A DNA stretch of 64,000 nucleotides from Bacteroidales bacterium (lineage in GTDB: Bacteria; Bacteroidota; Bacteroidia; Bacteroidales; F082): assembly GCA_017395365.1 (NCBI GenBank), contig JAFPUN010000016.1, forward strand, positions 1-64,000, given 5' to 3'. The position numbers were made by a program, and so were the translations under genes. Under the pieces are notes generated by a model. It was not told the DNA's origin. It saw nothing but the letters and a program-made list of their open reading frames with translations, and did not search any database. Each line of letters begins with the position of its first letter. The stretch's first letter is position 1. This document shows, in pieces, positions 7,974 through 63,873 of the stretch.

Positions 7974-8016
7974 TTGCATGGTCTCTGTTTCAAAAATGAA
8001 GATTTTCGGATGTCAC

Positions 8017-8628
8017 TCACTCCGTCAACCCATAGCGGACGGCGTAGTTGATCAATTCTTTCGTGGACTTCAGGCCAAGTTTGAGGAAGACGCGTTCCTT
8101 GTGGGTCTCAACGGTGCGTTTGCCGATGTGCAGCTTCTCACCTATCTCTTTTGCGGTCAAGCCTTGGGCACAAAGCTTGATAATCTCTTTCTCGCGATCA
8201 GAAAGTTCTTCGGAAACCGGGACTGAGACGGCCTCGAGAGTTGTCCCGAAAAGCATATCAATGCGTTGCTTCATCTCATCAGGCTTCACGTTCTTGCCGA
8301 TAAAGCCGTCAATGCGGTCATGTAATTGCGCCATCACCTTAGGGGGCAACACCTCGCCCGAAAGCAACAACACCTTTACTGAGGGGCAGTACAATTCAAC
8401 CGCATCGAGCACATCGAAGGCCGTGCCATCGGTTAGGAAAAAGTCGAGCAGGAGCAGGTCGAGTTCGTGGCCATTGGTTTTCAAGTATTCTGTGGATTGC
8501 ATCACATTCTCTGTCTCCGACACCACTTGGAAGGCAATGCCTGAATACCGCAACGTCATCTTCAAACCAACACGAAAAATCGGGTGGTCGTCCACTATCA
8601 TAATATTGATTTTCCGTTTGTTAGCCAT
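8017..8628 (-). CDS. NarL/LuxR-family response regulator
   Basis: 203 aa. A receiver domain occupies residues 6-120, with acidic pair D13/D14 and phospho-acceptor D62 in LLLLDFF. A LuxR-type helix-turn-helix lies at about 140-200 (LSDREKEIIKLCAQG, then TAKEIGEKLHIGKRTVETH). It lies 5 nt downstream of the histidine kinase gene on the same strand, so the two form a cognate pair. Phosphorylation by that kinase would drive DNA binding. Targets are not evident; the palindrome at 7954-7973 just downstream is a candidate. Confidence 0.93.
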   Translation of the reverse strand: MANKRKINIMIVDDHPIFRVGLKMTLRYSGIAFQVVSETENVMQSTEYLKTNGHELDLLLLDFFLTDGTAFDVLDAVELYCPSVKVLLLSGEVLPPKVMAQLHDRIDGFIGKNVKPDEMKQRIDMLFGTTLEAVSVPVSEELSDREKEIIKLCAQGLTAKEIGEKLHIGKRTVETHKERVFLKLGLKSTKELINYAVRYGLTE

Positions 8629-8633
8629 TTTCT

Positions 8634-48539: not shown

Positions 48540-48565
48540 GATTCGATTGCTTGTCATTCAGGCGA

Positions 48566-48672: not shown

Positions 48673-49111
48673 TTATGCTACCATTAGAATTGCGGCGAGG
48701 GATGCGAGGCCTTCGGAGAGGTGGCGAAGCCAGTGGCCATCGGTGAGTTTGTGCTCAACGATATAGTCGCGGAGGCGGGTGCGCCACTCCTTGTTTTGGA
48801 GCAGCACCCAGAGATCTTCGTCGAAGAAGGCGCAGGTGACGTTTTCCTTCAGCCAGGCTTTTGAAGGGGTCGTGCTCTTGTCTTCTTTCGCTTTGAGCTG
48901 GAGGTGCCAGAAACCATCGGTGGACAGGTGCCAGAAGGGATTGGCGATGTCTGTCGGCTTGTCGAACTGGGATTGGCGTGTGTACTGGCGCATCAGCGAA
49001 AGATAATGCTCTTCGAGCCATTCATTCAGCGCGAAGCGGTTGTTGGTGAACACACCCGAATCTATACCATCAATCAGCGCAAGCATCAGGACGGGCTTGG
49101 CCACGATGACC
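48673..49111 (-). pseudogene. 3' part of an IS66-interrupted restriction-type gene
   Basis: Removing the insertion sequence and one target copy joins this piece in frame to 51711-51805 and gives a 177-aa protein. Features are IVAKPVLMLALIDGIDSGVF, ANPFWHLSTDGFWHLQLKAK and DLWVLLQNKEWRTRLRDYIV. The K-P-LMLALIDGI and PFWHL..DGFWHL pattern resembles the N-terminal region of HNH-type restriction endonucleases that carry sulfur-binding domains. No catalytic motif is visible, so it may be a DNA-recognition subunit. Its own short ATG within the insertion end is an artefact. Confidence 0.75.
49104..49111. repeat. target-site duplication, left
   Basis: CGATGACC directly flanks the IS66 terminus; an identical copy is at 51703-51710. 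Confidence 0.95.
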
Positions 49112-49228
49112 GTAAGCATTCGACGAACTACAGGTAGTTGAACCTTTATATTGCACCAACAGCGACTGTAACTTGAACTGAAGTTGTAGTCGCTGTTGCT
49201 ATTGTTGCACCTATTTGCTGTACCTATA

Positions 49229-50854
49229 TCATGAAGTTGTTGTCATCACCGATTCCGGATGTTGCACCTTCCACTTGTGGGGTAGCAGCTGCACCAGCTC
49301 GTCGTGTGTCGCCTTGGCCTGATAGGGCATCCGACTGATGACGTCGTTGAGGTAGTCCCTGGGGTTGACGTCGTGGTTGCGGCAGGTGGCCAGCAGCGAG
49401 CAGACGACCGTCATGTTCCTGGCGGCCTCGTGGTTGCCGCAGAAGAGGTAGTTCTTCCTGCCGAGCGTGATGGGGCGGATCTCGTTCTCGGCAAGGTTGT
49501 TGTCGAGCAGCAGCCTCCCGTCCTCGAGGACGCGCATCATGTTGTCCCAGCGGGTGTAGGCGTAGGTGATGGCCTTGCCGATGAGCGAGCCCTCGCTGTA
49601 CTTGACGCCCTCGGTCTCCATCCACACCCTCATGGCCTCCATGATGGGCTTGGACAGCTCGTTGCGCTTGGCCTTGCGCTCGTCGGGTGTCATCTTGGCG
49701 TCGTCACACTGGTGCTCTATCCTGTAGAGATGCTGTATCTCCGCGAGGGCATGCTCCGCCACGGGACGGTTCTCGTCGAGTGCCTGCTCGAAGTGGCGGC
49801 GTATGTGGACGAGGCAGTTCACCAGGCGCACGCCGGGGTTGTCACGGAAGGCCGTCTCATAGCCCCCGAAGCCGTCGCATTGCAGGTATCCCTTGAAGTC
49901 GTGTCTCTTTGCCAGCGCCTCTATCACCGCTCCCGCCCGGGAGCCCTGGTCGTAATGGAACAGAACCAGCCTCTCTATCACCGCCCGTATCATCCAGACG
50001 TACTCCTTCGCCGCCTTGTGGCTGTCGCGGTCGATGACCGGGGTGGTGGTCTCGTCGGCCTGGGCGTACTCCGTCCTCATGACCTCGGCCTCAAGTGCGT
50101 CGTGGAGCGGGCGCAACAGCTCCACGGTCTGCTTGAACCAGCCGTCCACGGTGCTCTCGGTCAGCCCCTTCATGCCGAGGTGGCTGTACTGCTTGATCTG
50201 GCGGTAGTAGGGCATGTGGTACTCGTACTTCTGGAGCAGGAGGTCGGCCAGCAGGCTGGCGCCGGCGATGCCCTTGTTGATGGGCAGCAGCGGCATCGGG
50301 GCTATCATCACGCCACTTTTCCCCTCGGGAGCCAAGGCGGTGTTGTCCCTCAGGCCCCACTTCTCGCGGACGATCTCCTTGATGTAGAGCTGCCCGGGCT
50401 TGTGCTCGACAACGCGGGTCACCTCCTCGCCGATCTTCTTGTAGAGGGTCTCGTCCACACCCTCGGGGGTGATGACCACGCGTTCCAGCACGGGAAGGCC
50501 TTCCATCAACTGGCGGTTCCTCCTCTCGCGTGCGCGGTCCTCCTTGGTCTTGGCGATCTTCCCCACGGCCTCGTCGCGCGCTTCCTCGGCCTGCTTCATC
50601 CGCTGGGCCTGCTCCTCCGCGAAGAGGCTTGTCTGGTTGGGGTCGATGATGCCGAGCCTCTCGGACTTGCGCCCGAAGAGCTGGCGGTTGAGCCATGCGA
50701 CCTGGGCGGTCAGTTCCTTGATGCGCTCGTTGAGGGCGTCGACCTCCTTCCTGTGGTTCTCCGACATGACGGCAATGGAGGCGTTGAGCGTCTCTATCGT
50801 CCTGGCCAAAGTCTCTCTTTCCTCCATTTTCCGTGTCGTTTGAATATGGTACAA
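49229..50854 (-). CDS. IS66 transposase TnpC
   Basis: 541 aa DDE transposase. N-terminal leucine-zipper-like coiled coil (LNERIKELTAQVAWLNRQLF, then GRKSERLG), zinc-finger region without the usual Cys set, and DDE core with YAQADETTTPV, LQCDGFGGYETAF and LAENEIRPITLGRKNY. It is the last gene of the IS66 operon and catalyses transposition. Full length, no frameshift. Confidence 0.95.
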   Translation of the reverse strand: MYHIQTTRKMEERETLARTIETLNASIAVMSENHRKEVDALNERIKELTAQVAWLNRQLFGRKSERLGIIDPNQTSLFAEEQAQRMKQAEEARDEAVGKIAKTKEDRARERRNRQLMEGLPVLERVVITPEGVDETLYKKIGEEVTRVVEHKPGQLYIKEIVREKWGLRDNTALAPEGKSGVMIAPMPLLPINKGIAGASLLADLLLQKYEYHMPYYRQIKQYSHLGMKGLTESTVDGWFKQTVELLRPLHDALEAEVMRTEYAQADETTTPVIDRDSHKAAKEYVWMIRAVIERLVLFHYDQGSRAGAVIEALAKRHDFKGYLQCDGFGGYETAFRDNPGVRLVNCLVHIRRHFEQALDENRPVAEHALAEIQHLYRIEHQCDDAKMTPDERKAKRNELSKPIMEAMRVWMETEGVKYSEGSLIGKAITYAYTRWDNMMRVLEDGRLLLDNNLAENEIRPITLGRKNYLFCGNHEAARNMTVVCSLLATCRNHDVNPRDYLNDVISRMPYQAKATHDELVQLLPHKWKVQHPESVMTTTS

Positions 50855-50927
50855 AGGTACGGAAAAAGGTTGGAACTGACAAATTTTTTAGGCCAAAAAA
50901 CGATAAAAGTTATCAACATTTTTCGCT

Positions 50928-51305
50928 TTACACGACGTACTCGTGACGCTGTGCGCGGAGCCTCTTGAGCCGCTGTCCGGGTGTCTCCCGGATGCCCTCC
51001 ACCATCACCACCAGGTCGCGCCATTCCATCGGGTAGCTCCCTGTCGCCTCGTCGTATTCCGGCAGCTTGAAGCGTCCCGCCTCCAGCCGCTTGACGTACA
51101 TCACCATCCCGCCGTCCTCGGCGTGCAGGAGCTTCATCAGCCGTCGGCTTTGGCCGACGAAGATGAACACGTCGCCGTTGCGGACCTCGCTCTTCATCTT
51201 CTCGTGCACCACCCCACACAGCGAGCTGATGCCCTTGCGCATGTCGGTCATCCCGGGGCAGAGCCAGTAGCGCATCGTGTCATTCAGGCAGAACATGGCT
51301 CCCAA
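50928..51305 (-). CDS. IS66 accessory protein TnpB
   Basis: 125 aa, the IS66 Orf2 family: RYWLCPGMTDMRKGISSLCG, VFIFVGQSRRLMKLLHAEDG and VMYVKRLEAGRF. Required with TnpA for efficient IS66 transposition; biochemical role unclear. Its start lies inside the end of tnpA (26-bp overlap). Confidence 0.93.
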   Translation of the reverse strand: MGAMFCLNDTMRYWLCPGMTDMRKGISSLCGVVHEKMKSEVRNGDVFIFVGQSRRLMKLLHAEDGGMVMYVKRLEAGRFKLPEYDEATGSYPMEWRDLVVMVEGIRETPGQRLKRLRAQRHEYVV

Positions 51306-51609
51306 GGCTTTTGGTCAGCAACTCCATGAGCATGCCCTCCGTGCCGCTGCCGAAGTGGGCGCGAAGGCCGTTGGGGAACAGCAGCGTCGCTCCCGACGGG
51401 ACGACACCAGTGAAGGCGGGATCGGACTGCTGTCGGCTGGTGAAGCTGATGGGAGCCAGGTCCCTTGCGGGACTCGCCTCTGCTTCCAACTTCTTCCTCC
51501 AGTAGTTGTAGGTGGAATAGCCGATACCCGCCTCTTGCAGGTACGACTTGATCGACTTGCCACTCTGTTGCAAGTCCAGTTGTAATACTTCGAACTCTTC
51601 TTTGGTCAT
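51280..51609 (-). CDS. IS66 accessory protein TnpA
   Basis: 109 aa, small HTH-type Orf1 of IS66: LQLDLQQSGKSIKSYLQEAG and YSTYNYWRKKLEAEA. First gene of the insertion-sequence operon, 39 nt after a clear promoter. It overlaps tnpB, which suggests translational coupling. Confidence 0.88.
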   Translation of the reverse strand: MTKEEFEVLQLDLQQSGKSIKSYLQEAGIGYSTYNYWRKKLEAEASPARDLAPISFTSRQQSDPAFTGVVPSGATLLFPNGLRAHFGSGTEGMLMELLTKSLGSHVLPE

Positions 51610-51648
51610 GATCTGTAACAGTTGTAGTCTTGTGCACTATTGCGACCG

Positions 51649-51656
51649 CAAAAATA
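51649..51656 (-). promoter_or_regulatory. TAnnTTTG promoter inside IS66
   Basis: TATTTTTG on the minus strand, upstream of tnpA. Confidence 0.7.
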
Positions 51657-51702
51657 CAGCACGACTATAACCCCCACAACGTGTATTTCACCGAATGCTT
51701 AC

Positions 51703-51805
51703 CGATGACCTCGCCACGGATTTTCGCCTGGCGAATGCTCATAATCCTGTCCGTATAATGTGCGTAGCACAGGGAGTAATCGTAGAATTTGAGAGAGCGG
51801 TTCAT
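51703..51805 (-). pseudogene. 5' part of the IS66-interrupted gene
   Basis: ATG at 51805 overlaps the stop of the upstream GHKL-helicase gene (ATGA). The encoded start is MNRSLKFYDYSLCYAHYTDR, then IMSIRQAKIRGEVI. The insertion at CGATGACC (51703-51710) ends it; the frame continues in 48673-49111. The overlap shows the intact gene was translationally coupled to the helicase gene. Confidence 0.8.
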
Positions 51806-54800
51806 TTTATCTGAATATCAATACTCTTGTCATCAATACGAACTTCGTATTTGGACGATGGAGCTGTATAGACATTTGCCAATTGATGTGTGGTGACGAA
51901 AGTATTCTTCTCAATATGGTTAGTATCACCAAACATGTATTTCTCAACTTCTTGGGCTGTATGATAAGACATCTCACTCAAATTCTCCTTAGCAATTACG
52001 CCAATGCTCTTTGCCTGGAGTTTGTCGAAGTGTTCATAATCACGGTCAGGTATCAACAAGAAGAGATAATCTTGAGCACGGCTAATGGCAACATTCAAGA
52101 TGTTTTTCCTGTTGATGAAAGTCCTGTCAGCAGCTCTAACCATTCCTGACGCTGGCGGGTTGTAAACAGCAATGATAATATCACACTCATCACCTTGGAA
52201 GCCATGAACCGTTCCTATAGTGACTTCTATTTGAGAATATGGTTCTTTGCGCTGTTCCCAAAGCTTATTTACCACCTCAGCCTGGGCATGATATGGACTA
52301 ACTATACCAATTCTCCATGGTTTGCCATCATCTTTCACTGACAGGTTTTTGGCTACATATTTTGTAAACTCAAAAGCAAACAATGCCGCATACACATGAA
52401 CATTTGATGTACCAACCTGCTGTGCGCTGTATATAGATTGTGATCTCTCTACCGGGAATGTAATGAAGTTCACGCTTTTTGCTAAATAATCACCCAAAGA
52501 TATTTTTTGTTGGGACGATTGTTCTCTTTGCGATGTCACACCTCCTCCGTAAGCATATTTACTATACAAATCACCTATTGCAGGTACGGCACGATATTGT
52601 GTTGGAAGATTCAGAATATCGAACTGCACAGGGCGTGTTTGTGGGTTCTTAAAGTTTTCCAAGTGTATCATTTTATAGATGTTTTCGTCTTTCCATAACT
52701 CTTCGTGCACAATCGGTTCTATCTGCATCGGGTCGCCAGCAATTACGATTTGTGCACTGGTACACTTGTATATAGGATACACTATTTGAGCCAATGGAAT
52801 CATTGATGCTTCATCAATCACAACATAATCCCATCCAATGTCTTTCAGTTTTGCATCATCAAAACCATCGTAAGAGAAACGAGCGATGGTTGAAATTACA
52901 CAGCATTTATTCTCTTCCCATATATTGCTTTCACGCATACAAACATGCTCAGCCAATGAATCTTCATTAGTTGCAACAAAACGGAATAACCAGTCTTCAG
53001 GGCGAGAACGTTTATCTATCATCGCAAAAGCCTTTTTTGCAATAACATCAGCGGCTTTGTTTGTTGGGCATAATATCAGCATTTTTCCTCTTGGCTTCAT
53101 GGCAATTTGGCTAATCCATCTCTTGACAAGATGAGTGGTTTTGCCTGTACCAGGAGGGCCAAAAATAAATTTTATAGTTGGATTGATGTTTTCCATCATT
53201 GAATAATCATCAGGCAACTGCAAATCGAAAAAGGCTTCTTGTAGTTTTGCGATAAGCTGAACAGGAGTATCGGTCTTTAATTCGGCTCGATATATTTTAT
53301 GCGCTAACGACATCAGCGTGTCAACCGCATTTACATCTTCGTTTTTACATTTCAAGCGAAGCACATAATCCTGCACACTTGCCACTTCGAAAACAATGGT
53401 TTGATGCGTGTCTTCTGGTAAACGGAATGTCACCGCGATATTATTCATCTCTTCGATAGCGATTGGTATGTGTCGAGATGGATTCTTTAGTAATACTCCA
53501 TGTTCTGAATACGGGTCTTTTTCAACTCGAGAGAAGTTTATCTCAATACCACGTTTACCTCTATTCTCTTCTCCACTTGCATTGAACTCCATCTCAAGCA
53601 TCGTCAAAAACCATTCATACGTGTACCGTTTCTCTGAATCGATTGCAATTTGTTGAAGTCGCTTTCTTTCTTCTTCCTGGTCTTGTAATTGTTTTAATTG
53701 CTTGTCAAAATCTACAGACGTTAAAGGCTCTGAGCTTTGGGGTTTAGAAGGTGTCGTGGTAGCGGTTTTATCAAAAGTCTCATCAACCGAATATTTGTTT
53801 TGCTTATGTGTAAAAGGGGTTTCATCGTGCTCCGCTTGAAGCATTTGCAACTTTTTACGTTCCTCTTCTTCCTGTCTCTTCTTTTCTGCTGCACGCATCT
53901 CTGCCTCTTCTCTTTTGATTTTTTCCTCTCTGAGTTTAATTAACTCAGCCATTTCCTCTGGCGATTTTATGCCTGCGTCTTGGGCCATTCTGCCCATACG
54001 TGTTGCATTGACTGTGGCTTTAGAGCAATGCTCTTCAATGAATTTGTCATCTTGTGTCTGTGGCAGGTGTTTTAGACCAATGAGATTAATCATTGCTTCT
54101 GAGACGGTGTATTTTCCGCTCAAATCCTCAATGTATACATTACTAGGATTGCACAGTTGCCCATTCTTATTATAGAGCCACTTGTTTCTTTTTATGGTTA
54201 TTGACAGAGTGCTTTCGAAACAACATGTTTTGCGATTATATCTATAATCATTATGAGGTTGATATGAGCAATCACCCGTCAAGCATCGGTTTATCTTATT
54301 TATCTGTTGGCTCAATGAAAGCCAAATAAAAGCAGAATACTCCTCTGTTATACTATTGTTTCCACAGCATTCGTCCAATGTATCCAGATAGTAATCCGTA
54401 AATCGAGGACTGCCATACTCATACATGCTTTTTGCTGCAATTCTTCTTAAGAACTCGTCGTTTTCAATACTATTTGATTCAACAATCTGCAGGTATGGAC
54501 TAAAACCAAACCGATTCAAAAAGCTATCACAAATCCCCTCTTTAATGCCTTCAATTTTATGATAATAATCTCTATCAAGTATATGCATATATTCAATGAT
54601 GTTGCTTGCCATCATTGTTTGTTCCGTCTTGTCATAAATAACATCTTCAATCAAATGGAAGTGATTATTTGTGCATTTGAATTTAAATCTCTTCTTGACT
54701 ATTGACAAATACTCTTCTGTGTTTATGCATTTTTGATACACTTCGCAAATAAATCTAAAATCTTTCTTGTATTGATTGTCATCATAAAGGCAGCCACTAC

Positions 54801-56574
54801 CAGAATATCTTGGCAAAATCACATTCTCCACATAGTTTCTCCCATCGGGCACCGTGATATTGATTTTTTTAAGCAATTCACGAAAATCTGCATCAGCTAC
54901 AAGGATTGGATCAACGTAATTAAAGCCCTCCATTTGCGACGTTCCATCGCTTATAAAAATAGTTGGCTTGCCAGTAAGCGTATACGGGGCGACAAACTTT
55001 TTCTTTGAATTACGTATAAAAGGTTTGGTGAGAAGTGGCGCGGATGTAGAATTAAAGAAGTTCACCTTATATTTCTCTATTAACCTTCTTGCAGGTTCTG
55101 TAGTAAGAAACTTATAAAATTTCAATAGCCATTCTTCATCCTGCTTTGTAATAAAGGCCTCTGAAAAGTCTCTACCGAACTTATCTATGGTATATGTTTC
55201 AATGCCGATATCATCCAGATAGTTATCTATTTCATCAGTTCTCTTAAGTTTTGTATGTACATAATAACCTCTTCCAGACTTTACTAATTGATTAAACTGC
55301 TCAACGCTTAATAATTGTCTAAGGTGTTCGTCAACTTTATAGGAATTAGAAGCCGGTACATACTTCTTTTCGGTACTCAAATGAACTGCTTTATTAGATA
55401 ACGTAGCCTCAAACGAAGTATAAAAACTATTGAACCACCTCTCCTGGTCCTTGTCATCATCACCATATCTTTCATCGAGCGGGACTATTTCAAAAATGTT
55501 CTCATCAATCCATTGTTTGTTTTGCTTTTCAGACAATTCACACAATAGAACTAATGCTTTTGTAGCCAGTACAGACAATTCATCAAACAAATCTGAGTTA
55601 ATCTCTTCTTCTCGTTTGATTTGTTGTCGATTGTCGACAAGGGCAAACGGTGCGTGCATCACGAAACAAAAACCAAGGCTTTCGCTCGTAGGGAAATAGC
55701 AGAAAATCTTGGGTCGTCGTTGGGTATCTACCTTACCTTTATCATTGATGTAATATCCAACAGAAATAGGATATATTCCATTTTCAACCTCTACGTCACG
55801 TGTAAAAAGCCAGAGATTATCTTCGGTAAGACTATCACCAAGGCTTTTTACTATGATGTTCTCGCAAATTATATCACCTATTTTGATGTGTTTTTCGACC
55901 TCTTTAAGATAAATACCTTTCACCTTGTCGTCTTCACTACTCCAACTAATCTCTTTCAAATGGTTCAAAAACAATATTGGACTATTCAGAGACTTCAGTT
56001 TAGATTCAATAATGCTGTATGCTTTGGGGGCTTGCAGTTTTTCGCTATCAAATGGTAAGTAGAAAAGGGTTTCTCCTTTTTTTCTCCAAGGGTGGTCTTT
56101 CTCTATCAATTCGGGAATAATGTAGTCTCGCAGACGGAAACAAACATTATCGTCATATATTTCAGGCGTTTTTGTGAATTGGAAAACTGCCTTGAAACCA
56201 ACACCAAATTTACCGATTTTATTATCCGTCGATCCTTCGGTTTTTGTTGACATTCCAATTGATGTAATCGAATTGAGATGTCCCAATTTCCCTTTGGCTA
56301 TATCCTCTTCATAACTGTCCGGATCTGATACAGTGAATCTAATGGTTCCATTATGTTTGAACAGAATACCTGCTTTGGTCAAATATATGTCAGCAGCTGT
56401 TGCTTTCGCATCATCAGCATTTTGGAGCAATTCATAGATAAAATGAGCTGAGTCAGGATATTTGTCAATAACCGAAGACCACCACCGCTTGTATTCAGGC
56501 TCCATAAATACTTTAGCATGGTTTATTTTCTTTTCATTCAGTCTTTGAAACCATTTAATCTCTTGATCGTTCAT
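51802..56574 (-). CDS. GHKL-ATPase/SF1 helicase fusion protein
   Basis: 1590 aa. Residues 30-140 are a sacsin/HSP90-like GHKL ATPase: YELLQNADDAKAT (E48, N52, D55), HNG at 74-76 and GKFGVGFKAVF at 121-131. The middle is helical, with a charged coiled coil (KIKREEAEMRAAEKKRQEEE). From about residue 1100 it is a UPF1-type helicase: Walker A GPPGTGKTT at 1139, CPTNKAADVI, VVIDEASMIP, VIAGDPMQIEP, TVHGFQGDECDIII and NVAISRAQDYLFLL. Both ATPases look intact. Similar two-ATPase proteins occur in phage-defence islands. It follows a DUF2971 gene by 49 nt and is coupled to the IS-disrupted gene. Confidence 0.85.
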   Translation of the reverse strand: MNDQEIKWFQRLNEKKINHAKVFMEPEYKRWWSSVIDKYPDSAHFIYELLQNADDAKATAADIYLTKAGILFKHNGTIRFTVSDPDSYEEDIAKGKLGHLNSITSIGMSTKTEGSTDNKIGKFGVGFKAVFQFTKTPEIYDDNVCFRLRDYIIPELIEKDHPWRKKGETLFYLPFDSEKLQAPKAYSIIESKLKSLNSPILFLNHLKEISWSSEDDKVKGIYLKEVEKHIKIGDIICENIIVKSLGDSLTEDNLWLFTRDVEVENGIYPISVGYYINDKGKVDTQRRPKIFCYFPTSESLGFCFVMHAPFALVDNRQQIKREEEINSDLFDELSVLATKALVLLCELSEKQNKQWIDENIFEIVPLDERYGDDDKDQERWFNSFYTSFEATLSNKAVHLSTEKKYVPASNSYKVDEHLRQLLSVEQFNQLVKSGRGYYVHTKLKRTDEIDNYLDDIGIETYTIDKFGRDFSEAFITKQDEEWLLKFYKFLTTEPARRLIEKYKVNFFNSTSAPLLTKPFIRNSKKKFVAPYTLTGKPTIFISDGTSQMEGFNYVDPILVADADFRELLKKINITVPDGRNYVENVILPRYSGSGCLYDDNQYKKDFRFICEVYQKCINTEEYLSIVKKRFKFKCTNNHFHLIEDVIYDKTEQTMMASNIIEYMHILDRDYYHKIEGIKEGICDSFLNRFGFSPYLQIVESNSIENDEFLRRIAAKSMYEYGSPRFTDYYLDTLDECCGNNSITEEYSAFIWLSLSQQINKINRCLTGDCSYQPHNDYRYNRKTCCFESTLSITIKRNKWLYNKNGQLCNPSNVYIEDLSGKYTVSEAMINLIGLKHLPQTQDDKFIEEHCSKATVNATRMGRMAQDAGIKSPEEMAELIKLREEKIKREEAEMRAAEKKRQEEEERKKLQMLQAEHDETPFTHKQNKYSVDETFDKTATTTPSKPQSSEPLTSVDFDKQLKQLQDQEEERKRLQQIAIDSEKRYTYEWFLTMLEMEFNASGEENRGKRGIEINFSRVEKDPYSEHGVLLKNPSRHIPIAIEEMNNIAVTFRLPEDTHQTIVFEVASVQDYVLRLKCKNEDVNAVDTLMSLAHKIYRAELKTDTPVQLIAKLQEAFFDLQLPDDYSMMENINPTIKFIFGPPGTGKTTHLVKRWISQIAMKPRGKMLILCPTNKAADVIAKKAFAMIDKRSRPEDWLFRFVATNEDSLAEHVCMRESNIWEENKCCVISTIARFSYDGFDDAKLKDIGWDYVVIDEASMIPLAQIVYPIYKCTSAQIVIAGDPMQIEPIVHEELWKDENIYKMIHLENFKNPQTRPVQFDILNLPTQYRAVPAIGDLYSKYAYGGGVTSQREQSSQQKISLGDYLAKSVNFITFPVERSQSIYSAQQVGTSNVHVYAALFAFEFTKYVAKNLSVKDDGKPWRIGIVSPYHAQAEVVNKLWEQRKEPYSQIEVTIGTVHGFQGDECDIIIAVYNPPASGMVRAADRTFINRKNILNVAISRAQDYLFLLIPDRDYEHFDKLQAKSIGVIAKENLSEMSYHTAQEVEKYMFGDTNHIEKNTFVTTHQLANVYTAPSSKYEVRIDDKSIDIQIK

Positions 56575-56623
56575 TTTCAGTTTATATGTCTTAATTCGTT
56601 TGCGAAGATGTCTTTAGAATTGG

Positions 56624-57571
56624 TTAGTCGACAGCATAAGACTTCAATTTGAACACATTAGCTGTATCTGGTTGGATTTTCATAACCTGATTTTTTACTC
56701 CACCAATGTAATTAATTATGCTTTGTGCTATTGTTTCAGGACATCTACATCCAATAAACACTTGATAAATATTTTCTTTCCCTATTGGCAAATAGATATT
56801 TCCATCTTTGCTCCAATAATACTGGTTACAATTATAATCACGGTCATACCATACAAGCCTCCATTCATTTTCTTCTTCATAATCTTTTGTTTTTGACATA
56901 AAACCATCAGCTACAATACCTCGGTCAAATTCAAAAACATCCTTATACTCAACCGCATTAAAAACGAATTTTTCTCCAAGACCCTTTTCCAAGACATCAT
57001 TAAAGAACCTATAACGAATGCATATTCCTTTGCTTCCAGCACCATAATAAGCCCATTTTTTACTGTCTTCCCAAGCTCTTTGTTTTCCTTTAACAAGACC
57101 AAAACAACACACCCTTAACCCGTCAAAAACCGACTTGGTAGGAAAAATGTCTTGATTTAATCCTTCTTGAACAATTGAGCAATCTGTAGGGTCATTAAAA
57201 GATGAGGGCTTAACTAAACGAATCGTTCTTAATATCAGATCGATGTTGTTTTCATTGACATCATAAAACTTATAGAAGTCCTGATATTGGTAATTTTTAT
57301 TTTTGCTGCCTTTTATGTGGCATTCAATGCTTCTTTTGTAATACTCTTCACTTTGAACGCCAAATAATCTTGCAAGAATAAAGTAACAGTGAGCTAAATT
57401 ACAAAGAATGTTTTCTGTTTCTGAGTGTTCATAATAGTAGACCGCAGCCTCAAAACACATTTTTCGCTGTTCAGGGCTGAGCCCCGCAGTTTTCCCTAAT
57501 TCATAACATTGTTGACCCTTCTCTTCAAAACTAGTATTCCAGTTTGATTGTATTCTTTCAAGCTCTTCCAT
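56624..57571 (-). CDS. DUF2971 domain protein
   Basis: 315 aa. N-terminal ~90 residues are helical with TPR-like character (GLSPEQRKMCFEAAVYYYEH). The DUF2971 part follows from about residue 95: FYKFYDVNENNIDLILRTIR, LVKPSSFNDPTDC, CCFGLVKGKQRAWEDSKKWA, YGAGSKGICIRYRF and KDYEEENEWRLVWYD. Function of the domain is unknown; it recurs near restriction and defence genes. It lies between the helicase-methyltransferase gene (23 nt) and the GHKL-helicase gene (49 nt). Confidence 0.8.
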   Translation of the reverse strand: MEELERIQSNWNTSFEEKGQQCYELGKTAGLSPEQRKMCFEAAVYYYEHSETENILCNLAHCYFILARLFGVQSEEYYKRSIECHIKGSKNKNYQYQDFYKFYDVNENNIDLILRTIRLVKPSSFNDPTDCSIVQEGLNQDIFPTKSVFDGLRVCCFGLVKGKQRAWEDSKKWAYYGAGSKGICIRYRFFNDVLEKGLGEKFVFNAVEYKDVFEFDRGIVADGFMSKTKDYEEENEWRLVWYDRDYNCNQYYWSKDGNIYLPIGKENIYQVFIGCRCPETIAQSIINYIGGVKNQVMKIQPDTANVFKLKSYAVD

Positions 57572-57594
57572 TACAATTACTTTCTATGTACAAC

Positions 57595-60500
57595 TTATTC
57601 TTCCTTTCGGGCAAGAACTTCTTCGATGTGGGTTTGTTCAGGTGATGATATTTTGAAGAGCTTGTATAGTTGCTCGTCGATGTTTTTGCTGAAATCGATG
57701 AACTTGTTCTTGTCGGAATAGTCGAGGATGTCTGGGACTTTGAGGGCGAGCGATGTGAGTGATTCGTCGGTCATCAGGAAGGCGAAACGGATGAGCTTGC
57801 TTTGGGCGTAGGCATAGAAGTTTTGGGCTTCTTTCTTCGTGTCGAAGGTCTTCAGGGCGACACGGGCACGGCCAAAAGCACTGTGGTTGTCAAGGATGGC
57901 AATCTGATTGCTACGCTTCTGGCCACCAGCATTGGCACTTGACACCACAACTTTCCATTTGTTCAAGTATTCGGTTCCAGTGGTGATGACATCCTTGCTG
58001 GCCACATACCACCTTGCCCTTCCACTCTTACCAGCCTTGTCGTTGGTCAACAACTTGATTTCGGTGGTTGGATCGAACAATTCGCCCTCGGAGTACTCGC
58101 GAACCAATGTAGGATTATCTTCAACAAAACTACTTTCAATAGAGAATAGTTTTTGTGATAGGACAGAATCGTGTAGCATTTTAAGTTTGTTTTCTTCCAC
58201 AAACTTTTCAATACTTGAAACAATTGAAGCATCTGCGGGATTGAGCGGCATTAGACTATCACCAGGGTTTTGCATAAAAACCTCTTGGTTCATACCATGT
58301 TCGGAATAGATATATTGGAAGCCTGATGTGGTTTTGGCTGCATCCTTCATCACAATAGTAATTCCATCGGCAATGCCAGCATCCGTAAAGATTTCGTTGG
58401 CATCGGGATAGAAATACAACAAACTCAAATGAGGATCGTTGATTTGGCTCTTTCCAAAATCAGCCAATCCCTTGCCCGACCTGTGAATCCATCTTGCACC
58501 AGGATATATTAACGAAGTGTAGTGGCCTAATTTGTCACTTACAATCTGGAAGAGATGGAATATGCTCGACACCCTCTTCTGGCCATTTTCAGTTTCCTTC
58601 TGGGCTACCGTCAGTTGATACGGTGGATTTCCTACTATAGCGTTGAATTTCATATTCTTTTCGTTGTTTGCGTTCCAGTAATTTTTTCCGTTCGTCACCT
58701 TGGCGATGAACTGCGGCTGCTTGTTTTGTATTTGGTTGATAAGGTCTTCAAAGTATTTGGCATTGACCTTTGCATTGCGGAAACCGCGCAATGTGCGGCG
58801 GGTGATGCTCTTGGCCATTGGAGTTTTGCAGATGACAAAGATGTTTTCGGCCAAGGTCTTATTCCACAGTTCGCGCTGCTTATCATCAGGCAAGTCGGTG
58901 GGCAATGAATGCTCATCACGATACCGCTGACAGCGGGCGGCGAATGTGCTGTAGGTCATGTAGAGCGGATAGAGACCCGTCTTTGAGTTGATTTCGAGGA
59001 TGCGGGTATCGGGATTGAGAAAAACCTTTTGTGTTGGCTCGCCACGGTCAACAAAACGAGGCTCGGCCAAGAGGCCGTTTTCATCGTCGTGGGTTTCGTC
59101 ATAGAAGTCCCAACCGCCAAGGCAGTTGCTAATGTGCATGTTGACCACACGCCAAGGAGTCAGCACGGTTTCCTTGTCGGGATTGCGGAAGTAGCCAAAG
59201 ATGCGAGCGATGCGCTGCACACGCTCCGCAGGAGCGAGACTATCAGCAGCGCGAGCCATATCGCGGATTTGGCGGCCAGCCGCACGGAAGATGTCGGGAT
59301 CATAGTATTTGATGAACTGCGCGAACTTATCCTTGGTGACACCATTAGGCATGAACTCATCCCATGACTGGTCGTCGATGAGCTTTGCAAAATTGTCGAT
59401 GGTGACATCTTCGTTTTCGTTGGTGAGGTCGGCACCATAGATGAGCAAGGGGAAACGGATGCTAATGCCACGCAAGATGCTGATGGCAGCCTGACGGTTG
59501 CTGCGTTTCTTCTTCAGCTCTTCAAGCAAACGCTTTTCCTCTTCAGTAAGCTCTCTCTTTGGCTTTTTCTTGGCTTTTTCAATCTGCTCATATTCTTCAT
59601 CGGTAAAGCCCTGCTTGTTGATGTCAACATCGTCAGAGCCGTGGCTGGCTTTGGTAGCTCCGATAATCTTCTTCAAGTCTTCGAACTGGCGAAGCTCAAC
59701 ATCGGTAAGCTTCAAAAGATTATCGTTGTAGAGATGGGCATCTTCAAAGCCGTGGCGCACAACACGGTCAACATAAGCACGTTTGAGCTGTTCGAGCATA
59801 CCTTCAACATTGAAGGCTTCCATTCGGGTGCCGTTGTAGCCGATGATGGGACAGAAATTGAGGAACTGACCCATGGTGGCGCGGTCGTCATCGCTTTGCA
59901 CCTTGCCAGCTTTAGCAGTGATTTTAGCCACCTGTGCGATGACTTTCAAAGTACGGTCGGGAGCGAAGTCGAACACGAAACATTCTTCTTTCCGTTTGCC
60001 TGATTTGGCCTCGTATGGGCTTTGCACACGGAAGATAGTTTGCATATAAGCTTTGGCATCGGTTTGAGCGGAACCAGCCAGCATGAAGACTGCAGTCCAT
60101 GGACGAACAGTTACGCCTGTAGTCAAGCGGCCACAAGAGAGCGTAATGGTGAAGGTTTCTTCAGGGTTGTCGCCCATGGCCTTCTCCACCATTTTGAGAG
60201 CTTCGTCGTGTTCGGCTTCCTCGTCGCCTTCACCAGCCACATTGACAATTTCGAAATGCTGAAACACGGTGTGGTTCTGCAACAATGCAGACAGGGCACG
60301 AGCTTCTTTCACACCTGGCAACATCCAAAGAGAGTGACGGAAGTTGCGACGGTATTCAGCAGTGCTATATGGATAGTTGCTTTCCTTGTCGTATTTCACA
60401 ATCAGATCAAGGAAACGCAAGACATCCTTTTCGTGGACAAAACGCCCGATTTCAGTGTTGGCGGGCATGTTTACATGGTCACGCTTTGGGTCGCCAGTCC

Positions 60501-61701
60501 AAGTGCGGAAAAACTCCTTGAAGTTGAAGGCAGCGTCTTCCACATCGGCGTATCCAGAAACAATTTTGCCGAGGTCGAAAGTGAAGATGTTGAGCCTGGG
60601 CAGACCTGCGTATGGGTTGGGGTCGCCGAAGTGGTTCAAGTCCCACTCTTGCTTGGCGCGTTGCTCCATCACATAGTCCCAGGTATAGACTTCATCTTCG
60701 TTGAAGTCGTCCAAAAGGTTGAATGGAGTGCCAGACAGGTTGAGGATGCAGGTGTGTTGCTTCTGCAAAGAATCAAGCACCGATTGGCCGAGTTGCGTTT
60801 GGGTGCCTTCGTGAGCTTCATCTATGATTAGGCAATCCCACGGAGCAGAGAGGATTTCCTCATTTTTCTCAAACTTACCACCTACCTGTTCAGAGCCACG
60901 CAGGTCTTGCATGGAGGCGAAATAGATATAATGCCACAATGGATAGCGGGATGCATCCTTTTCGAGTTCGGCAAACATAAAACCGTTATTGCGAGAGCCA
61001 TAGCGATAGGTTTCCTTCTTTTTGTCGTGGCCGCCGTAATCATAGAAGATCTTGCCGAAATCTTCAAACCAGCCCTTATCGACCACGGGGCGATGGGTCA
61101 GGATAAGAGTGCGGTGGAACTGGCATTGCCGAACCACTTCAAGTGCAGACAGCGTTTTGCCAAAACGCATCTTGGCGTTCCAAAGCATGTGACTTCCCTC
61201 GTGCTGGAACTTTTTAACTGTCTTGGCAATGGCCTCTTTTTGCTCTGGACGGAAGACGATGGGGTTGTGTTCCTTGGTCACCTTGCTGCCATCGAGAGCC
61301 GTCTGGCCATGTTTCACAGCTTTGATGGCTTCGAGGGCGGTTTGCAAGTCACATTCAAACCATTCGGAGCCTTGTTTCTCGGTACTGAAATCATGGCGTT
61401 TGACACCGGAGCGGAGCAAGACTTCGTGGACGGCCTTGTCGTTGAAAGAAACAATGCTGCCGCCTTCAATGTGAAGGGTTAACTCGGTGTGGAGAAGGTC
61501 GTAATCAACCCCAGCCGTTTGCGTGTATTGGTTGATTCTGGCTTTGGCCGCTTGGTTTAATTCATGGCAATTAGGCGGCAGATTAAGCGAGCTGGCTTCA
61601 GGCAGCGTGGCTTCTCCGATTTTGACACATCCCGCATGAGCTTTGTCGTTGATGCGAAAGATGTAGATTAGTTTAGCCTTCAGTGATGATTGATACTTCA
61701 T
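57595..61701 (-). CDS. T5orf172/GIY-YIG - helicase - N6 methyltransferase protein
   Basis: 1368 aa. Residues 10-130 resemble a T5orf172 (GIY-YIG-type) domain: LIYIFRINDKAHAGCVKIGE and EWFECDLQTALEAI. A restriction-type SF2 helicase follows: LWNAKMRFGKT at 173-183, DEAH at 294, SGTP, and TFTITLSCGRLTTGVTVRPW. A charged linker (EEQIEKAKKKPKRELTEEEK) leads to a methyltransferase: VLTPWRVV, odd motif I ILEINSKTGLYPLY near 901-914, and NPPY at 1025-1028. The C-terminus may be a target-recognition region. The order nuclease-helicase-methylase resembles single-chain Type IIG/ISP enzymes. It lies 3 nt after a second methylase-like gene. Confidence 0.82.
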   Translation of the reverse strand: MKYQSSLKAKLIYIFRINDKAHAGCVKIGEATLPEASSLNLPPNCHELNQAAKARINQYTQTAGVDYDLLHTELTLHIEGGSIVSFNDKAVHEVLLRSGVKRHDFSTEKQGSEWFECDLQTALEAIKAVKHGQTALDGSKVTKEHNPIVFRPEQKEAIAKTVKKFQHEGSHMLWNAKMRFGKTLSALEVVRQCQFHRTLILTHRPVVDKGWFEDFGKIFYDYGGHDKKKETYRYGSRNNGFMFAELEKDASRYPLWHYIYFASMQDLRGSEQVGGKFEKNEEILSAPWDCLIIDEAHEGTQTQLGQSVLDSLQKQHTCILNLSGTPFNLLDDFNEDEVYTWDYVMEQRAKQEWDLNHFGDPNPYAGLPRLNIFTFDLGKIVSGYADVEDAAFNFKEFFRTWTGDPKRDHVNMPANTEIGRFVHEKDVLRFLDLIVKYDKESNYPYSTAEYRRNFRHSLWMLPGVKEARALSALLQNHTVFQHFEIVNVAGEGDEEAEHDEALKMVEKAMGDNPEETFTITLSCGRLTTGVTVRPWTAVFMLAGSAQTDAKAYMQTIFRVQSPYEAKSGKRKEECFVFDFAPDRTLKVIAQVAKITAKAGKVQSDDDRATMGQFLNFCPIIGYNGTRMEAFNVEGMLEQLKRAYVDRVVRHGFEDAHLYNDNLLKLTDVELRQFEDLKKIIGATKASHGSDDVDINKQGFTDEEYEQIEKAKKKPKRELTEEEKRLLEELKKKRSNRQAAISILRGISIRFPLLIYGADLTNENEDVTIDNFAKLIDDQSWDEFMPNGVTKDKFAQFIKYYDPDIFRAAGRQIRDMARAADSLAPAERVQRIARIFGYFRNPDKETVLTPWRVVNMHISNCLGGWDFYDETHDDENGLLAEPRFVDRGEPTQKVFLNPDTRILEINSKTGLYPLYMTYSTFAARCQRYRDEHSLPTDLPDDKQRELWNKTLAENIFVICKTPMAKSITRRTLRGFRNAKVNAKYFEDLINQIQNKQPQFIAKVTNGKNYWNANNEKNMKFNAIVGNPPYQLTVAQKETENGQKRVSSIFHLFQIVSDKLGHYTSLIYPGARWIHRSGKGLADFGKSQINDPHLSLLYFYPDANEIFTDAGIADGITIVMKDAAKTTSGFQYIYSEHGMNQEVFMQNPGDSLMPLNPADASIVSSIEKFVEENKLKMLHDSVLSQKLFSIESSFVEDNPTLVREYSEGELFDPTTEIKLLTNDKAGKSGRARWYVASKDVITTGTEYLNKWKVVVSSANAGGQKRSNQIAILDNHSAFGRARVALKTFDTKKEAQNFYAYAQSKLIRFAFLMTDESLTSLALKVPDILDYSDKNKFIDFSKNIDEQLYKLFKISSPEQTHIEEVLARKEE

Positions 61702-61704
61702 GGC

Positions 61705-62736
61705 TCATTTGTTTAATAGTGACTTGAACAATATCTTCTGTTTCTCTTTGTCCTTTATGCGCCAATCACGAACAAGGCAATAGATACCATTGTGCTTGTG
61801 CGGATTATCTTCGGCGCAGCCAGGGCAAGGCATAATCTTCAGTGATAACTGAACTGGGGTTTCGGTGCCAAATATATCAAGTTGTGGCCCATCTTGGTTT
61901 CTTGATTCCACATTATGGCAAGTCCCCGGCACTACGAACTTCAATCCGTCCATCTGCCATAGGTTCCACGAAATGATGTAGGCCATATAGTTGACAGACT
62001 TCATCAACGGTTCCTTACCAAATTTTGCGGTATAGAAGTCGATGAAGGTATAAAGCAGATTTTCACGGGCGAGTAACAGATTATCTCCCTGCCACTCGTA
62101 GCCGTAAGTATTCTGATAGGCTATTTGTGCCCAATCAAGCCATTCGCCGCTCGTTTCAGTGTTTTCACTGACAACACGGAGCTTACGGTCTAACAGACCA
62201 ATGCGACGCTCAACGGGGATAATCTCGCCCGAGGTGGTATCGTAGCGGCTGACGAGATATGGGGCTTCACCACAGGTGATTTCAAGGCGGGTGTCGCGAA
62301 CATAGTCTTTCCAGGTCTTTCCTTCAGGGAAGCTGATGGGATCGGCTGTAGGTTCCCATTTTTGGGAACCATCTTCAGCAGTGACAACGGTGTTGAAAAC
62401 ATCCTTTCTGCCAAACCAGGCTTCATCGACGAGGTTGTTCTGCGCATTGCAGATCCACGACGGAGTGAACACCTCAGCTTTGTCTTTTACCCTAAACTCT
62501 TGCTCTTCCTTCGGCTTCACAGCACGTGGCTTGATGACTTCGCCGAAATCACCAGTGATTTGCTCCACTTTGATTTCGTTGGAGAAGGAATAGGCCTCGC
62601 CATATTTGGCAACGTACATGTCGGTTGCCCAGATGATATTTCGGTGGGTAGTATGGTCGATGAGCAAGGTCTGCAGCACTTCAGGCCAACGGCGAAGGAT
62701 GTCGTTTTCTTTTATGTCGGTGGAGATGTCGGGCAT
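61705..62736 (-). CDS. methyltransferase-like subunit of a restriction-type system
   Basis: 343 aa. It has VFTPSWICNAQNNLVDEAWF (89-108) and a SAM-motif-like TRLEITCGEAPYL (149-161), followed by RRIGLLDRKLRVV and WLDWAQIAYQNTYGYEWQGD. I see no NPPY-type catalytic motif; the C-terminus has CPGCAEDNPHKH. I recognise the family as one usually labelled restriction endonuclease subunit M. It pairs with the adjacent large protein, whose own motif I is unusual and which carries NPPY. It has its own promoter. Confidence 0.78.
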   Translation of the reverse strand: MPDISTDIKENDILRRWPEVLQTLLIDHTTHRNIIWATDMYVAKYGEAYSFSNEIKVEQITGDFGEVIKPRAVKPKEEQEFRVKDKAEVFTPSWICNAQNNLVDEAWFGRKDVFNTVVTAEDGSQKWEPTADPISFPEGKTWKDYVRDTRLEITCGEAPYLVSRYDTTSGEIIPVERRIGLLDRKLRVVSENTETSGEWLDWAQIAYQNTYGYEWQGDNLLLARENLLYTFIDFYTAKFGKEPLMKSVNYMAYIISWNLWQMDGLKFVVPGTCHNVESRNQDGPQLDIFGTETPVQLSLKIMPCPGCAEDNPHKHNGIYCLVRDWRIKDKEKQKILFKSLLNK

Positions 62737-62764
62737 TGTTCAAAATGCTTGATATATGAGTGTG

Positions 62765-62772
62765 CAAAGATA
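62765..62772 (-). promoter_or_regulatory. TAnnTTTG promoter of the methylase/helicase genes
   Basis: TATCTTTG on the minus strand, 28 nt before the subunit M start. It separates this operon from the WYL regulator gene. Confidence 0.7.
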
Positions 62773-62849
62773 GGGAAAAAAGGGTGTTTTTAGGTCTATT
62801 TTTATAAAGAGGTATAAAAAAACAAAAAGATGTATAAGTTGAAGTTGGT

Positions 62850-63755
62850 TTAAACTATGGATAAGTGTTTTTCAGTGAAGTCTTTGATGTATTGGACGAG
62901 TTCGGGGGTGTCGATGATTTCGATGTCGTCGGCGAGGCCGATGACGAAGCGGCCAACGCCACGATAGTTGGCGACGAAGGTGTCAAGAATCCAATGGGTG
63001 CCATCCGCCTCAAAGACATCATCCTCGGCCATGGGGTACTCCTCGACGAGCAGGCTGTAAGCCCTCACGCCCAGGCGAAGCTGGACACGGTGACGGTCGA
63101 AGCCTGTCATGCGGAACGGGTCAACAAAGCCTTTGCGATGCGCGTGGCCGTGTTCCCATCTGGCGGGAAGCACCTCGGCATTGTAGATGCGGGCCATCTT
63201 GAAGGTCTTGTTCTTGCCGTCTTCAAGATCATAGCACCAGATTTCAGCGTAGTTGGTGGTGAATTCGTAAGGCTCCACGTAGCGGTCGCGGACGGATGCC
63301 GAGTTGGACGAGGCATAGTCGTGGAAGATGACTTGCTTGTGCTCCTTGATGGCGGTGGCCACAGCGCGGACGTTTTTCTCGTTCTTGTATTTCATGGTGC
63401 ATTTTGGCAGGTTGAGCGTGTCGATGAACGAGCCGAGCTTTGCCCGGATGTTCTCCCTGAAGAGCGTGTCGTCGGTGATGTTGTTTAGGGCTTCCTTGAG
63501 GACATGGGCTTCCTCGTTGGTGAAGTACATGACCTTGGAGAGGTCTTTCGTTTTTTCGGTGGCGAGGCTGTGGCGGCCACCACTGTAAATGACTGGAAGG
63601 CCGCCCTGTTTTAGGTTTTCGAGGTATCGATAGATGGTGGTGGTTGAGACTCCAAGCTGCTCGGCGAGTTCGGCAGTGGTGAAGCCTTTGCCTATGGCGA
63701 GGATGGAGATGAGTTTTACCATCTGAGCGATTTTCGGGTCTGTATTATCGGTCAT
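62850..63755 (-). CDS. HTH-WYL domain transcriptional regulator
   Basis: 301 aa. N-terminal winged helix (FTTAELAEQLGVSTTTIYRY, then LENLKQGGLPV) and a WYL domain at about 140-290 (YVEPYEFTTNYAEIWCYDLE, then KMARIYNAEVL). WYL regulators head many phage-defence islands and usually repress them until a ligand is sensed. It is followed by a separate promoter for the methylase/helicase genes, which may be its target. Confidence 0.88.
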   Translation of the reverse strand: MTDNTDPKIAQMVKLISILAIGKGFTTAELAEQLGVSTTTIYRYLENLKQGGLPVIYSGGRHSLATEKTKDLSKVMYFTNEEAHVLKEALNNITDDTLFRENIRAKLGSFIDTLNLPKCTMKYKNEKNVRAVATAIKEHKQVIFHDYASSNSASVRDRYVEPYEFTTNYAEIWCYDLEDGKNKTFKMARIYNAEVLPARWEHGHAHRKGFVDPFRMTGFDRHRVQLRLGVRAYSLLVEEYPMAEDDVFEADGTHWILDTFVANYRGVGRFVIGLADDIEIIDTPELVQYIKDFTEKHLSIV

Positions 63756-63865
63756 CTGTATCTATGGTTTGACAACAACAGGGTGTTGTGGTGAAAAGGT
63801 TATATATCTTTGAGTCACTGATTTGGCAAAATCAGAGGGTGGCCGAAAAGGGCTTCCCGTTGGCA

Positions 63866-63873
63866 CAAAGGTA
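63866..63873 (-). promoter_or_regulatory. TAnnTTTG promoter of the WYL regulator
   Basis: TACCTTTG on the minus strand with a leader of about 105 nt. The remaining 64000-side sequence (63874-64000) shows nothing else recognisable. Confidence 0.6.

What the first reader, a model, noticed from the sequence alone, without database searches (positions are those of the whole stretch)
51802..63873. Candidate undescribed defence operon: WYL, split-type methylase, GIY-YIG/helicase/methylase, DUF2971, GHKL-helicase, SBD-like gene
Six genes on one strand with gaps of 113, 3, 23 and 49 nt, then a 4-bp overlap, combine a restriction-modification-like pair with a GHKL-ATPase/UPF1-helicase protein and a coupled small DNA-recognition-like gene. 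WYL control and the IS66 insertion fit an anti-phage island. I know single-chain Type IIG/ISP enzymes and GHKL-containing defence proteins, but not this exact combination.
Basis: partly seen in the sequence, partly recalled or inferred. Interest (0 to 1): 0.85.

Follow-up and report, generated by a model that had tools for sequence, protein, structure and literature searches.

The report
Split-methylase restriction operon plus helicase accessory
This stretch of a Bacteroidales-type genome looks like several separable defence genes side by side rather than one new system; the most interesting part is a restriction enzyme whose DNA-methylating domain is divided between two proteins.

Summary
The six genes and their spacings are real. 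The sixth, an SBD-like gene, is broken by an IS66-type element (49112-51702).

They are not one conserved system. The closest relatives found of four parts lack the others: the methylase pair at 94/95% (L078), the GHKL-helicase at 75% (L021), SBD at 86% (L068), DUF2971 at 66% (L086). Of 48 other loci (mostly 3-20 kb, 47 with the small methylase), none holds the GHKL-helicase; one locus, L110, combines both. The GHKL-helicase is still linked to restriction operons: 8 of 47 upstream ORFs carry a methylase motif against 4 of 304 background ORFs (p=2e-5).

The notable part is the methylase. Small protein A has SAM motif I but no NPPY. The large protein has NPPY plus target domain (B), and a second motif I half whose first glycine is lysine in 38 of 38 modules, window included. 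Relatives fuse or separate A, B and nuclease-helicase differently. One viral-contig locus has an inverted B cassette with repeats on the NPPY codons beside a recombinase.

Verdict: new variant of restriction-modification; function inferred.

The parts
62850..63755 (-). HTH-WYL transcriptional regulator; promoter-like TACCTTTG at 63873; absent beside the closest methylase pair
   Evidence: L078
61705..62736 (-). Module A: SAM-binding half of a gamma-type N6-adenine methylase (motif X AEVFTPSW, motif I LEITCGEAPY), no NPP[YFW]
   Evidence: PADLOC MTase_II 5e-121; alignment A2; the related A' half in L229 reaches the Pfam MmeI_Mtase cut-off over positions 21-92. No Pfam hit for A itself
57595..61701 (-). 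Large restriction subunit: GIY-YIG/T5orf172 nuclease - SF2 helicase - X' - B
61282..61701 (-). G: GIY-YIG-type (T5orf172) N-terminal domain
   Evidence: 20.5 bits, cut-off 20; 27-35 bits in L020, L087, L229, L231; Y..KIG..R..H pattern
59722..61266 (-). C: SF2 helicase/translocase (ResIII)
   Evidence: Pfam ResIII 6e-14; RadD PDB hit E 0.003
58702..59199 (-). X': second motif X/motif I half with lysine in place of the first motif I glycine (LEINSKTGLYP)
57595..58668 (-). B: catalytic motif IV (GNPPYQ) plus target-recognition half
   Evidence: Pfam Eco57I 2e-23; A8
56624..57571 (-). DUF2971-like protein; its only close relative in 173 family genomes (65-66%, L086) sits beside another methylase/PLD-helicase set
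51802..56574 (-). GHKL (sacsin/HSP90-type) ATPase fused to a UPF1-type SF1 helicase, 1590 aa; family enriched behind RM operons
56146..56478 (-). sacsin/GHKL ATPase domain (ELLQNADDA, GKFGVGFKA)
   Evidence: Pfam SACS 3e-13
52054..53178 (-). SF1 (UPF1/SEN1-like) helicase domain
   Evidence: Pfam AAA_11/AAA_12; PDB NAM7/SEN1/UPF1
51703..51805 (-). 5' piece of the SBD-like gene (overlaps the GHKL-helicase stop by 4 bp)
   Evidence: 74-76% to intact relatives L068, L069, L071
49112..51702 (.). IS66-type element interrupting the SBD-like gene; 11-bp terminal repeats, 8-bp duplication at 49104-49111 and 51703-51710
48673..49111 (-). 3' piece of the SBD-like gene (sulfur-binding-domain type, no nuclease domain found)
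   Evidence: intact relatives L068 (86%), L069, L071

Best explanation
The interval is a patchwork of separable defence genes. Its core is a two-protein restriction-modification system with a split gamma-type N6-adenine methylase. Protein A carries the SAM-binding half. The large protein carries a GIY-YIG-type nuclease, an SF2 translocase, a lysine-altered second SAM half (X') and the catalytic plus target-recognition half B. Most likely A, loaded with SAM, completes B to methylate host sites, while the large protein uses B to find unmethylated sites, translocates and cuts with GIY-YIG. The following GHKL-helicase is an accessory ATPase/helicase whose family repeatedly sits behind RM operons of different types and probably acts on the same invading DNA. 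DUF2971, WYL and the broken SBD gene are loosely attached neighbours. Shown from sequence: the domains, the split, natural A-B fusions, the lysine conservation, and separate occurrence of the parts. Inferred: all activities, which halves pair, and the role of the GHKL-helicase.
For: 42 loci scanned with module profiles (some of these loci seeded the profiles). A|G-C-X'-B: 18 (L084 without a scored G; L169 over two frames). A|B|G-C-X': 4 (in L017 an IS256 copy lies between A and B and the B ORF shows no NPP[YFW]). A-B fused beside G-C-X': 4. A+B with no helicase in the fetched stretch: 2 records of one phage. Truncated A plus X'-B (L085): 1. A alone: 12. No A (L086): 1. Seven further loci are A|G-C-X'-B and three are A'|X'-B|G-C. 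In the fusions, motif I of A and NPPY of B stand in one chain, as in ordinary gamma methylases. The A' half alone matches the motif X-I part of Pfam MmeI_Mtase. X'-B aligns colinearly to a solved adenine methylase, 7lo5 (E 2e-4). GHKL-helicase: 8 of 47 upstream-operon ORFs of 300 aa or more carry [ND]PP[YFW] against 4 of 304 background ORFs, behind Type I, III, IIG and split systems.
Against: A shows no distance correlation with B (r 0.10; -0.13 within the main layout) and only a weak one with X' (0.23; 0.16), so partner choice is not supported by co-evolution. Twelve viral records carry A without a nearby B; a search of the whole records found a weak B-like match in one of the twelve (many records are fragments), so A may have another role there. 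The enrichment test uses pattern matches in 78 loci from a capped scan, and in the same set 26 of 55 loci with over 3 kb upstream have no contiguous upstream gene at all.
Confidence: 0.68

Rival explanations
1. One integrated six-gene defence system in which the WYL regulator, split RM, DUF2971, GHKL-helicase and SBD reader work together.
For: Tight spacing and a 4-bp overlap. L110, a Eubacterium MAG, independently has the split RM genes directly upstream of a GHKL-helicase, though flanked by GmrSD genes and without DUF2971 or SBD hits. The GHKL-helicase is enriched behind methylases.
Against: Parts occur apart in the 173 family genomes. 0 of 48 other loci, 47 of them with A, hold the GHKL-helicase. 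A G+C step falls at the RM/DUF2971 border. The closest relatives found of four parts lack the other parts.
Confidence: 0.1
2. RM system plus accessory: the split RM and the GHKL-helicase act as one unit here (a helper that remodels or loads the restriction complex, or a back-up when restriction fails), the other genes being bystanders.
For: Enrichment behind RM operons of several types; L110; precedent of GHKL ATPases in RM operons (PMC2292703, abstract and passages).
Against: Many GHKL-helicases have no operon: 26 of 55 loci with over 3 kb upstream have no contiguous upstream gene. The 75% copy has no RM genes beside it.
Confidence: 0.2
3. Ordinary Type IIG/ISP-like enzyme in which X'-B is itself the full methylase and A is only a regulatory or dimer subunit.
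For: X'-B is colinear with 7lo5 through motifs X, I and IV. A-B distances do not correlate. In L229-L231 X' stays with B, apart from the helicase.
Against: The first glycine of X' motif I is lysine in 38 of 38 modules, whereas canonical enzymes in held loci have glycine (4 of 4 with a readable motif). A-B fusions leave X' on the helicase. Phage PTm1 has A and B without helicase in the fetched stretch.
Confidence: 0.2

Closest known systems
Type ISP restriction enzymes (LlaGI, LlaBIII)
   Same: Nuclease, SF2 translocase, gamma-methylase and target domain joined in one long chain
   Different: Here the nuclease is GIY-YIG-type (ISP: Mrr-like, PMC3874165 passages), the fused methylase half has lysine in motif I, and a separate SAM-half protein accompanies it
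Type IIG / MmeI- and Eco57I-type enzymes; PADLOC REase_MTase_IIG and MTase_II PDLC03390
   Same: Methylase family and target domain; PADLOC already files A as a Type II methylase and the large subunit weakly as IIG
   Different: Helicase present, methylase split, B found on different chains
Split DNA methyltransferases mentioned by R. J. Roberts (personal communication in PMC4335053, passages)
   Same: Two or three subunits needed for one methylase activity
   Different: The passage gives no genes or motif layout; the locus it discusses is a Cj0031-type gene with a frameshift. The paper it cites (PMC3936762, passages) showed me no split methylase of this kind. Whether this family is meant cannot be told
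MORC / paraMORC GHKL ATPases of RM systems (PMC2292703, abstract and passages)
   Same: GHKL ATPase encoded beside methylases, SF2 helicases and nucleases
   Different: Here a sacsin-type ATPase is fused to an SF1 UPF1-type helicase; MORC family membership not tested
Tiamat (TmtA) and Mokosh (MkoA)
   Same: TmtA models match residues 39-819 (5e-58); MkoA models match the helicase end
   Different: Neither model covers the whole protein; it joins the two halves. The system names behind TmtA and MkoA are recalled
Sulfur-binding-domain (SBD) proteins / Type IV phosphorothioate readers
   Same: Sequence match to SBDHga1 (8h0l, 4e-25); lysine and proline of the sulfur pocket kept
   Different: No nuclease fused; the H116 and Y164 positions read A and N by my alignment; broken here
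Invertible hsdS loci (PMC4948785, search listing with start of abstract)
   Same: DNA inversion swaps specificity cassettes
   Different: In L167 the repeated piece contains catalytic motif IV itself and the repeats lie on the NPPY codons; inversion itself not observed

Membership tests
Type ISP | All functions in one polypeptide | tested here: not met
   A is a separate protein from the nuclease-helicase in the window and in the complete relatives
Type ISP | Mrr-type nuclease | tested here: not met
   T5orf172 (GIY-YIG type), no Mrr hit in Pfam
Type ISP | SF2 translocase next to a gamma-methylase and TRD | tested here: met
   ResIII and Eco57I, colinear X'-B
Gamma-type N6 methylase | Canonical motif I and NPP[YFW] in one chain | tested here: not met
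   In the window they are on two proteins (A and B); they share a chain in four fusions. Motif I of X' has lysine in 38 of 38
Gamma-type N6 methylase | SAM-dependent m6A formation | not testable with these tools
   needs expression and methylation calling
Type IIG (PADLOC model) | Full-length match to a REase_MTase_IIG model | tested here: not met
   Best model PDLC03626 3.6e-27, best stretch residues 317-732
Tiamat | Full-length match to TmtA | tested here: not met
   Best model covered 38-810 of 1302
Mokosh | MkoA helicase with its second gene, or single-chain MkoC (recalled) | tested here: not met
   Helicase part only; no Mokosh partner hit among the seven window proteins scanned
MORC/paraMORC RM systems | Membership of the MORC or paraMORC ATPase families | not tested
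   Pfam gives SACS; no MORC profile was compared
SBD / PT-dependent Type IV | SBD fold with pocket residues | tested here: inconclusive
   8h0l 4e-25; K and P kept, H to A and Y to N (residue roles from PMC6224610 passages)
SBD / PT-dependent Type IV | Fused HNH nuclease | tested here: not met
   Proteins of about 140-210 aa; no nuclease domain in Pfam for the two scanned (window C-part; L068)
IS66-type element | 8-bp target duplication and terminal repeats (recalled criteria) | tested here: met

The most novel reading that the evidence does not exclude
A restriction enzyme with a movable catalytic cassette. Half-domain B (NPPY plus target recognition) can be completed either by A, which binds SAM, giving methylation, or by X', a SAM-blind half on the nuclease-translocase whose invariant lysine stands where SAM's glycine loop should be, giving a restriction-only reader. 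B is exchanged as a unit, by fusion or fission and, in at least one viral-contig locus (L167), by recombinase-driven inversion with joints on the NPPY codons, so specificity of both activities changes in one step.
Probability: 0.3. Interest if true: 0.78.

Novelty: new variant of a known kind. Interest (0 to 1): 0.55.

Why it matters
Restriction enzymes must recognise one sequence in two modes, protect and destroy. A split methylase whose catalytic and recognition half sits between a SAM-binding partner and a lysine-blocked partner on the nuclease would be a physical switch between the modes, and would explain why specificity can be swapped as a cassette. It is testable with two intact genes. 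Separately, a GHKL-SF1 helicase found behind Type I, III, IIG and split RM operons points to a general RM accessory that PADLOC's models split between Tiamat and Mokosh.

Tried and rejected
Rejected: a single six-gene system; WYL as conserved controller (absent in L078; promoter-like box before A); A as a stand-alone complete methylase (no [ND]PP[YFW] in the unfused A proteins).

Tried without result: PDB search with A profiles (none at E up to 1); co-evolution of A with B or X' (weak, not informative); hhalign of X' against A (a 20-column motif X match only, E 0.0023, probability 12.8%); literature on Tiamat (no paper with three of four terms; five papers listed, none opened) and on this methylase split (nothing found that describes it; only the held open library was searched, not REBASE). 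My early note that X' always stays with the helicase was wrong: L229-L231 carry X'-B apart from the helicase. No chance model was run for the six-gene order.

Full report
OBSERVATION. The six genes, strand, gaps (113, 3, 23, 49 nt) and 4-bp overlap are all as written. The last gene runs outside the stated interval and is cut by an IS66-type element at 49112-51702 with 11-bp terminal repeats and the 8-bp duplication CGATGACC. Intact relatives of the broken gene read through the same point.

ANATOMY. The GHKL-helicase (1590 aa) has a sacsin/HSP90-type ATPase at residues 33-143 and a UPF1/SEN1-type SF1 helicase at about 1133-1507. PADLOC Tiamat models cover the first half and Mokosh models the helicase end (system names recalled). 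The large RM subunit (1368 aa) is T5orf172 (GIY-YIG type), SF2 helicase, a motif X/I half (X') and Eco57I-type motif IV plus target domain (B). T5orf172 is above its cut-off in 6 of 8 N-termini tested, window included. The small protein A (343 aa) has invariant motif X (AEVFTP) and CGE-type motif I in 12 of 12 aligned sequences and no NPP[YFW]. Motif names are standard and partly recalled (motifs I and IV are in PMC3874165, passages). G+C steps from 48-49% (RM) to 34-38% (DUF2971 and GHKL-helicase).

IS IT ONE SYSTEM? In 173 genomes of the family: GHKL-helicase 6 (E up to 1e-30, one of them partial), A 10 (1e-10), SBD C-part 20 (1e-5), DUF2971 5 (1e-5). Only the window's genome and G313 have both GHKL-helicase and A, in G313 on different contigs. 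In 198 genomes of the order: GHKL-helicase 7 (three of them helicase-only matches), A 8; both in the window's genome and in G166, there a helicase-only match on another contig. Gene maps: the 94/95% methylase pair in L078 has no WYL, DUF2971 or GHKL-helicase, and the 75% GHKL-helicase in L021 has no RM genes (an rmuC gene precedes it). Of 48 other loci (47 with A, plus L086; many only 3-13 kb), none holds the GHKL-helicase and one (L086) holds DUF2971 (E up to 1e-10). Among 78 GHKL-helicase loci from a capped genome scan, one (L110) has the split RM directly upstream, in the order A, B, nuclease-helicase, GHKL-helicase, and two (L100, L133) have a WYL-like gene within two genes.

GHKL-HELICASE AS RM ACCESSORY. 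In those 78 loci, 8 of 47 ORFs of 300 aa or more in the contiguous upstream stretch (up to four genes) carry [ND]PP[YFW], against 4 of 304 elsewhere in the same loci and 1 of 25 downstream (Fisher p=1.9e-5). The neighbours are Type I (L093, L145), Type III (L091, L101, L105), a methylase plus ResIII pair (L120), Type IIG (L141) and the split type (L110). Two plasmids also carry a methylase and a DEAD/DEAH helicase upstream, and PADLOC candidate PDC-S68, a RecD-like helicase, neighbours it in L023, L093 and L111. However, 26 of 55 loci with more than 3 kb upstream have no contiguous upstream gene. GHKL ATPases in RM operons are known (PMC2292703, abstract and passages).

THE SPLIT METHYLASE. 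I scanned 42 loci with module profiles built from the window family, some of these loci being profile seeds: 18 A|G-C-X'-B (L084 without a scored G; L169 in two frames), 4 A|B|G-C-X' (in L017 an IS256 copy lies between A and B, and the B ORF shows no NPP[YFW]), 4 with A and B fused beside G-C-X', 2 records of one phage (PTm1) with A and B and no helicase in the fetched stretch, 1 remnant (L085), 12 A only, 1 without A (L086). Seven more loci are A|G-C-X'-B, and three, one of them a second system in the window's own genome (L229, whose B frame holds one stop), are A'|X'-B|G-C. Thus motif I of A and NPPY of B stand in one chain where they are fused, and are divided between two proteins here. The A' half alone reaches the Pfam MmeI_Mtase cut-off over its motif X-I part. 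For the 12 A-only viral records, no xPP[YFW] ORF lies nearby, and a search of the whole records with one B protein gave one weak match.

THE LYSINE. X'-B aligns colinearly with PDB 7lo5 through motifs X, I and IV (E 2e-4; I recall this entry as the Type IIG enzyme DrdV). In that alignment the lysine of X' (LEINSKTG) stands on the first glycine of DPATGTG. All 28 X' modules (window included) and all 10 have lysine there (38 of 38; some are near-duplicates), while four canonical methylases in held loci have glycine (a fifth, L016, gave no comparable motif). This suggests a SAM-blind half. Co-evolution did not show which half A pairs with.

MOVABLE B. In the IMG/VR locus L167 the B joined to the large subunit is followed by a second B with one stop and an inverted third B 42% identical to the first. 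Inverted repeats of 45 nt (87%) and 33 nt (97%) lie on the codons for DAVIGNPPYQ and its counterparts, and a tyrosine recombinase (PF00589, 4e-28) lies beside the inverted copy. This is one locus: in 17 genomes with A (or A remnants), one search found no second B beside the first. I did not see both orientations.

SBD GENE. The family profile matches SBDHga1 (8h0l, 4e-25), keeps the lysine and proline of the sulfur pocket but has A and N where ScoMcrA has H116 and Y164 (my reading), and sits by SspC/SspD/PbeA in L069 and between BrxP and BrxC in L075. The window's genome (72.6% complete) has no PAPS-reductase-type match over the cut-off.

MECHANISM. Shown: domains, split, fusions, lysine, linkage. 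Inferred: A with B methylates; the large subunit recognises through B, translocates and cuts; the GHKL-helicase assists or backs up.

NOVELTY. PADLOC files A under Type II and the large subunit weakly under IIG, and a 2015 paper mentions a class of split methylases without describing its genes (PMC4335053, passages; its cited source PMC3936762 seen in passages). I found no description of this split, the lysine or the B cassettes in the searches named, which cover only an open-access library. I rate it a new variant of a known kind.

Noticed in passing
L167:9922-12987 and L217:14887-17695: Shufflon-like locus: three B cassettes, one inverted, repeats on the NPPY codons, tyrosine recombinase alongside.
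   Followed up: partly
L229 (G000:C12, about 5300-10070): Second, differently arranged split RM system in the window's own genome (A', X'-B with DPCSKSG, nuclease-helicase); the B frame contains one stop.
   Followed up: partly
L177, L180-L182, L184, L186-L192: Twelve viral records carry an A-like protein with no B nearby; a whole-record search found a weak B-like match in one. Possibly a decoy or anti-restriction subunit.
   Followed up: partly
L023, L093, L111: PADLOC candidate PDC-S68 (RecD-like helicase) recurs next to the GHKL-helicase.
   Followed up: partly
L069, L075: Small SBD proteins inside Ssp/Pbe and BREX (BrxP-BrxC) phosphorothioation-type clusters.
   Followed up: partly
47415-48557: YhcG-type PDDEXK gene (PADLOC PDC-S02) just after the broken SBD gene; YhcG-like genes also lie in four of the 48 other loci.
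   Followed up: no
L086:3128-11581: A DUF2971 relative (65%) beside a TaqI/Eco57I-type methylase, a PLD-SNF2 helicase and DUF3800: DUF2971 may be another RM accessory.
   Followed up: partly
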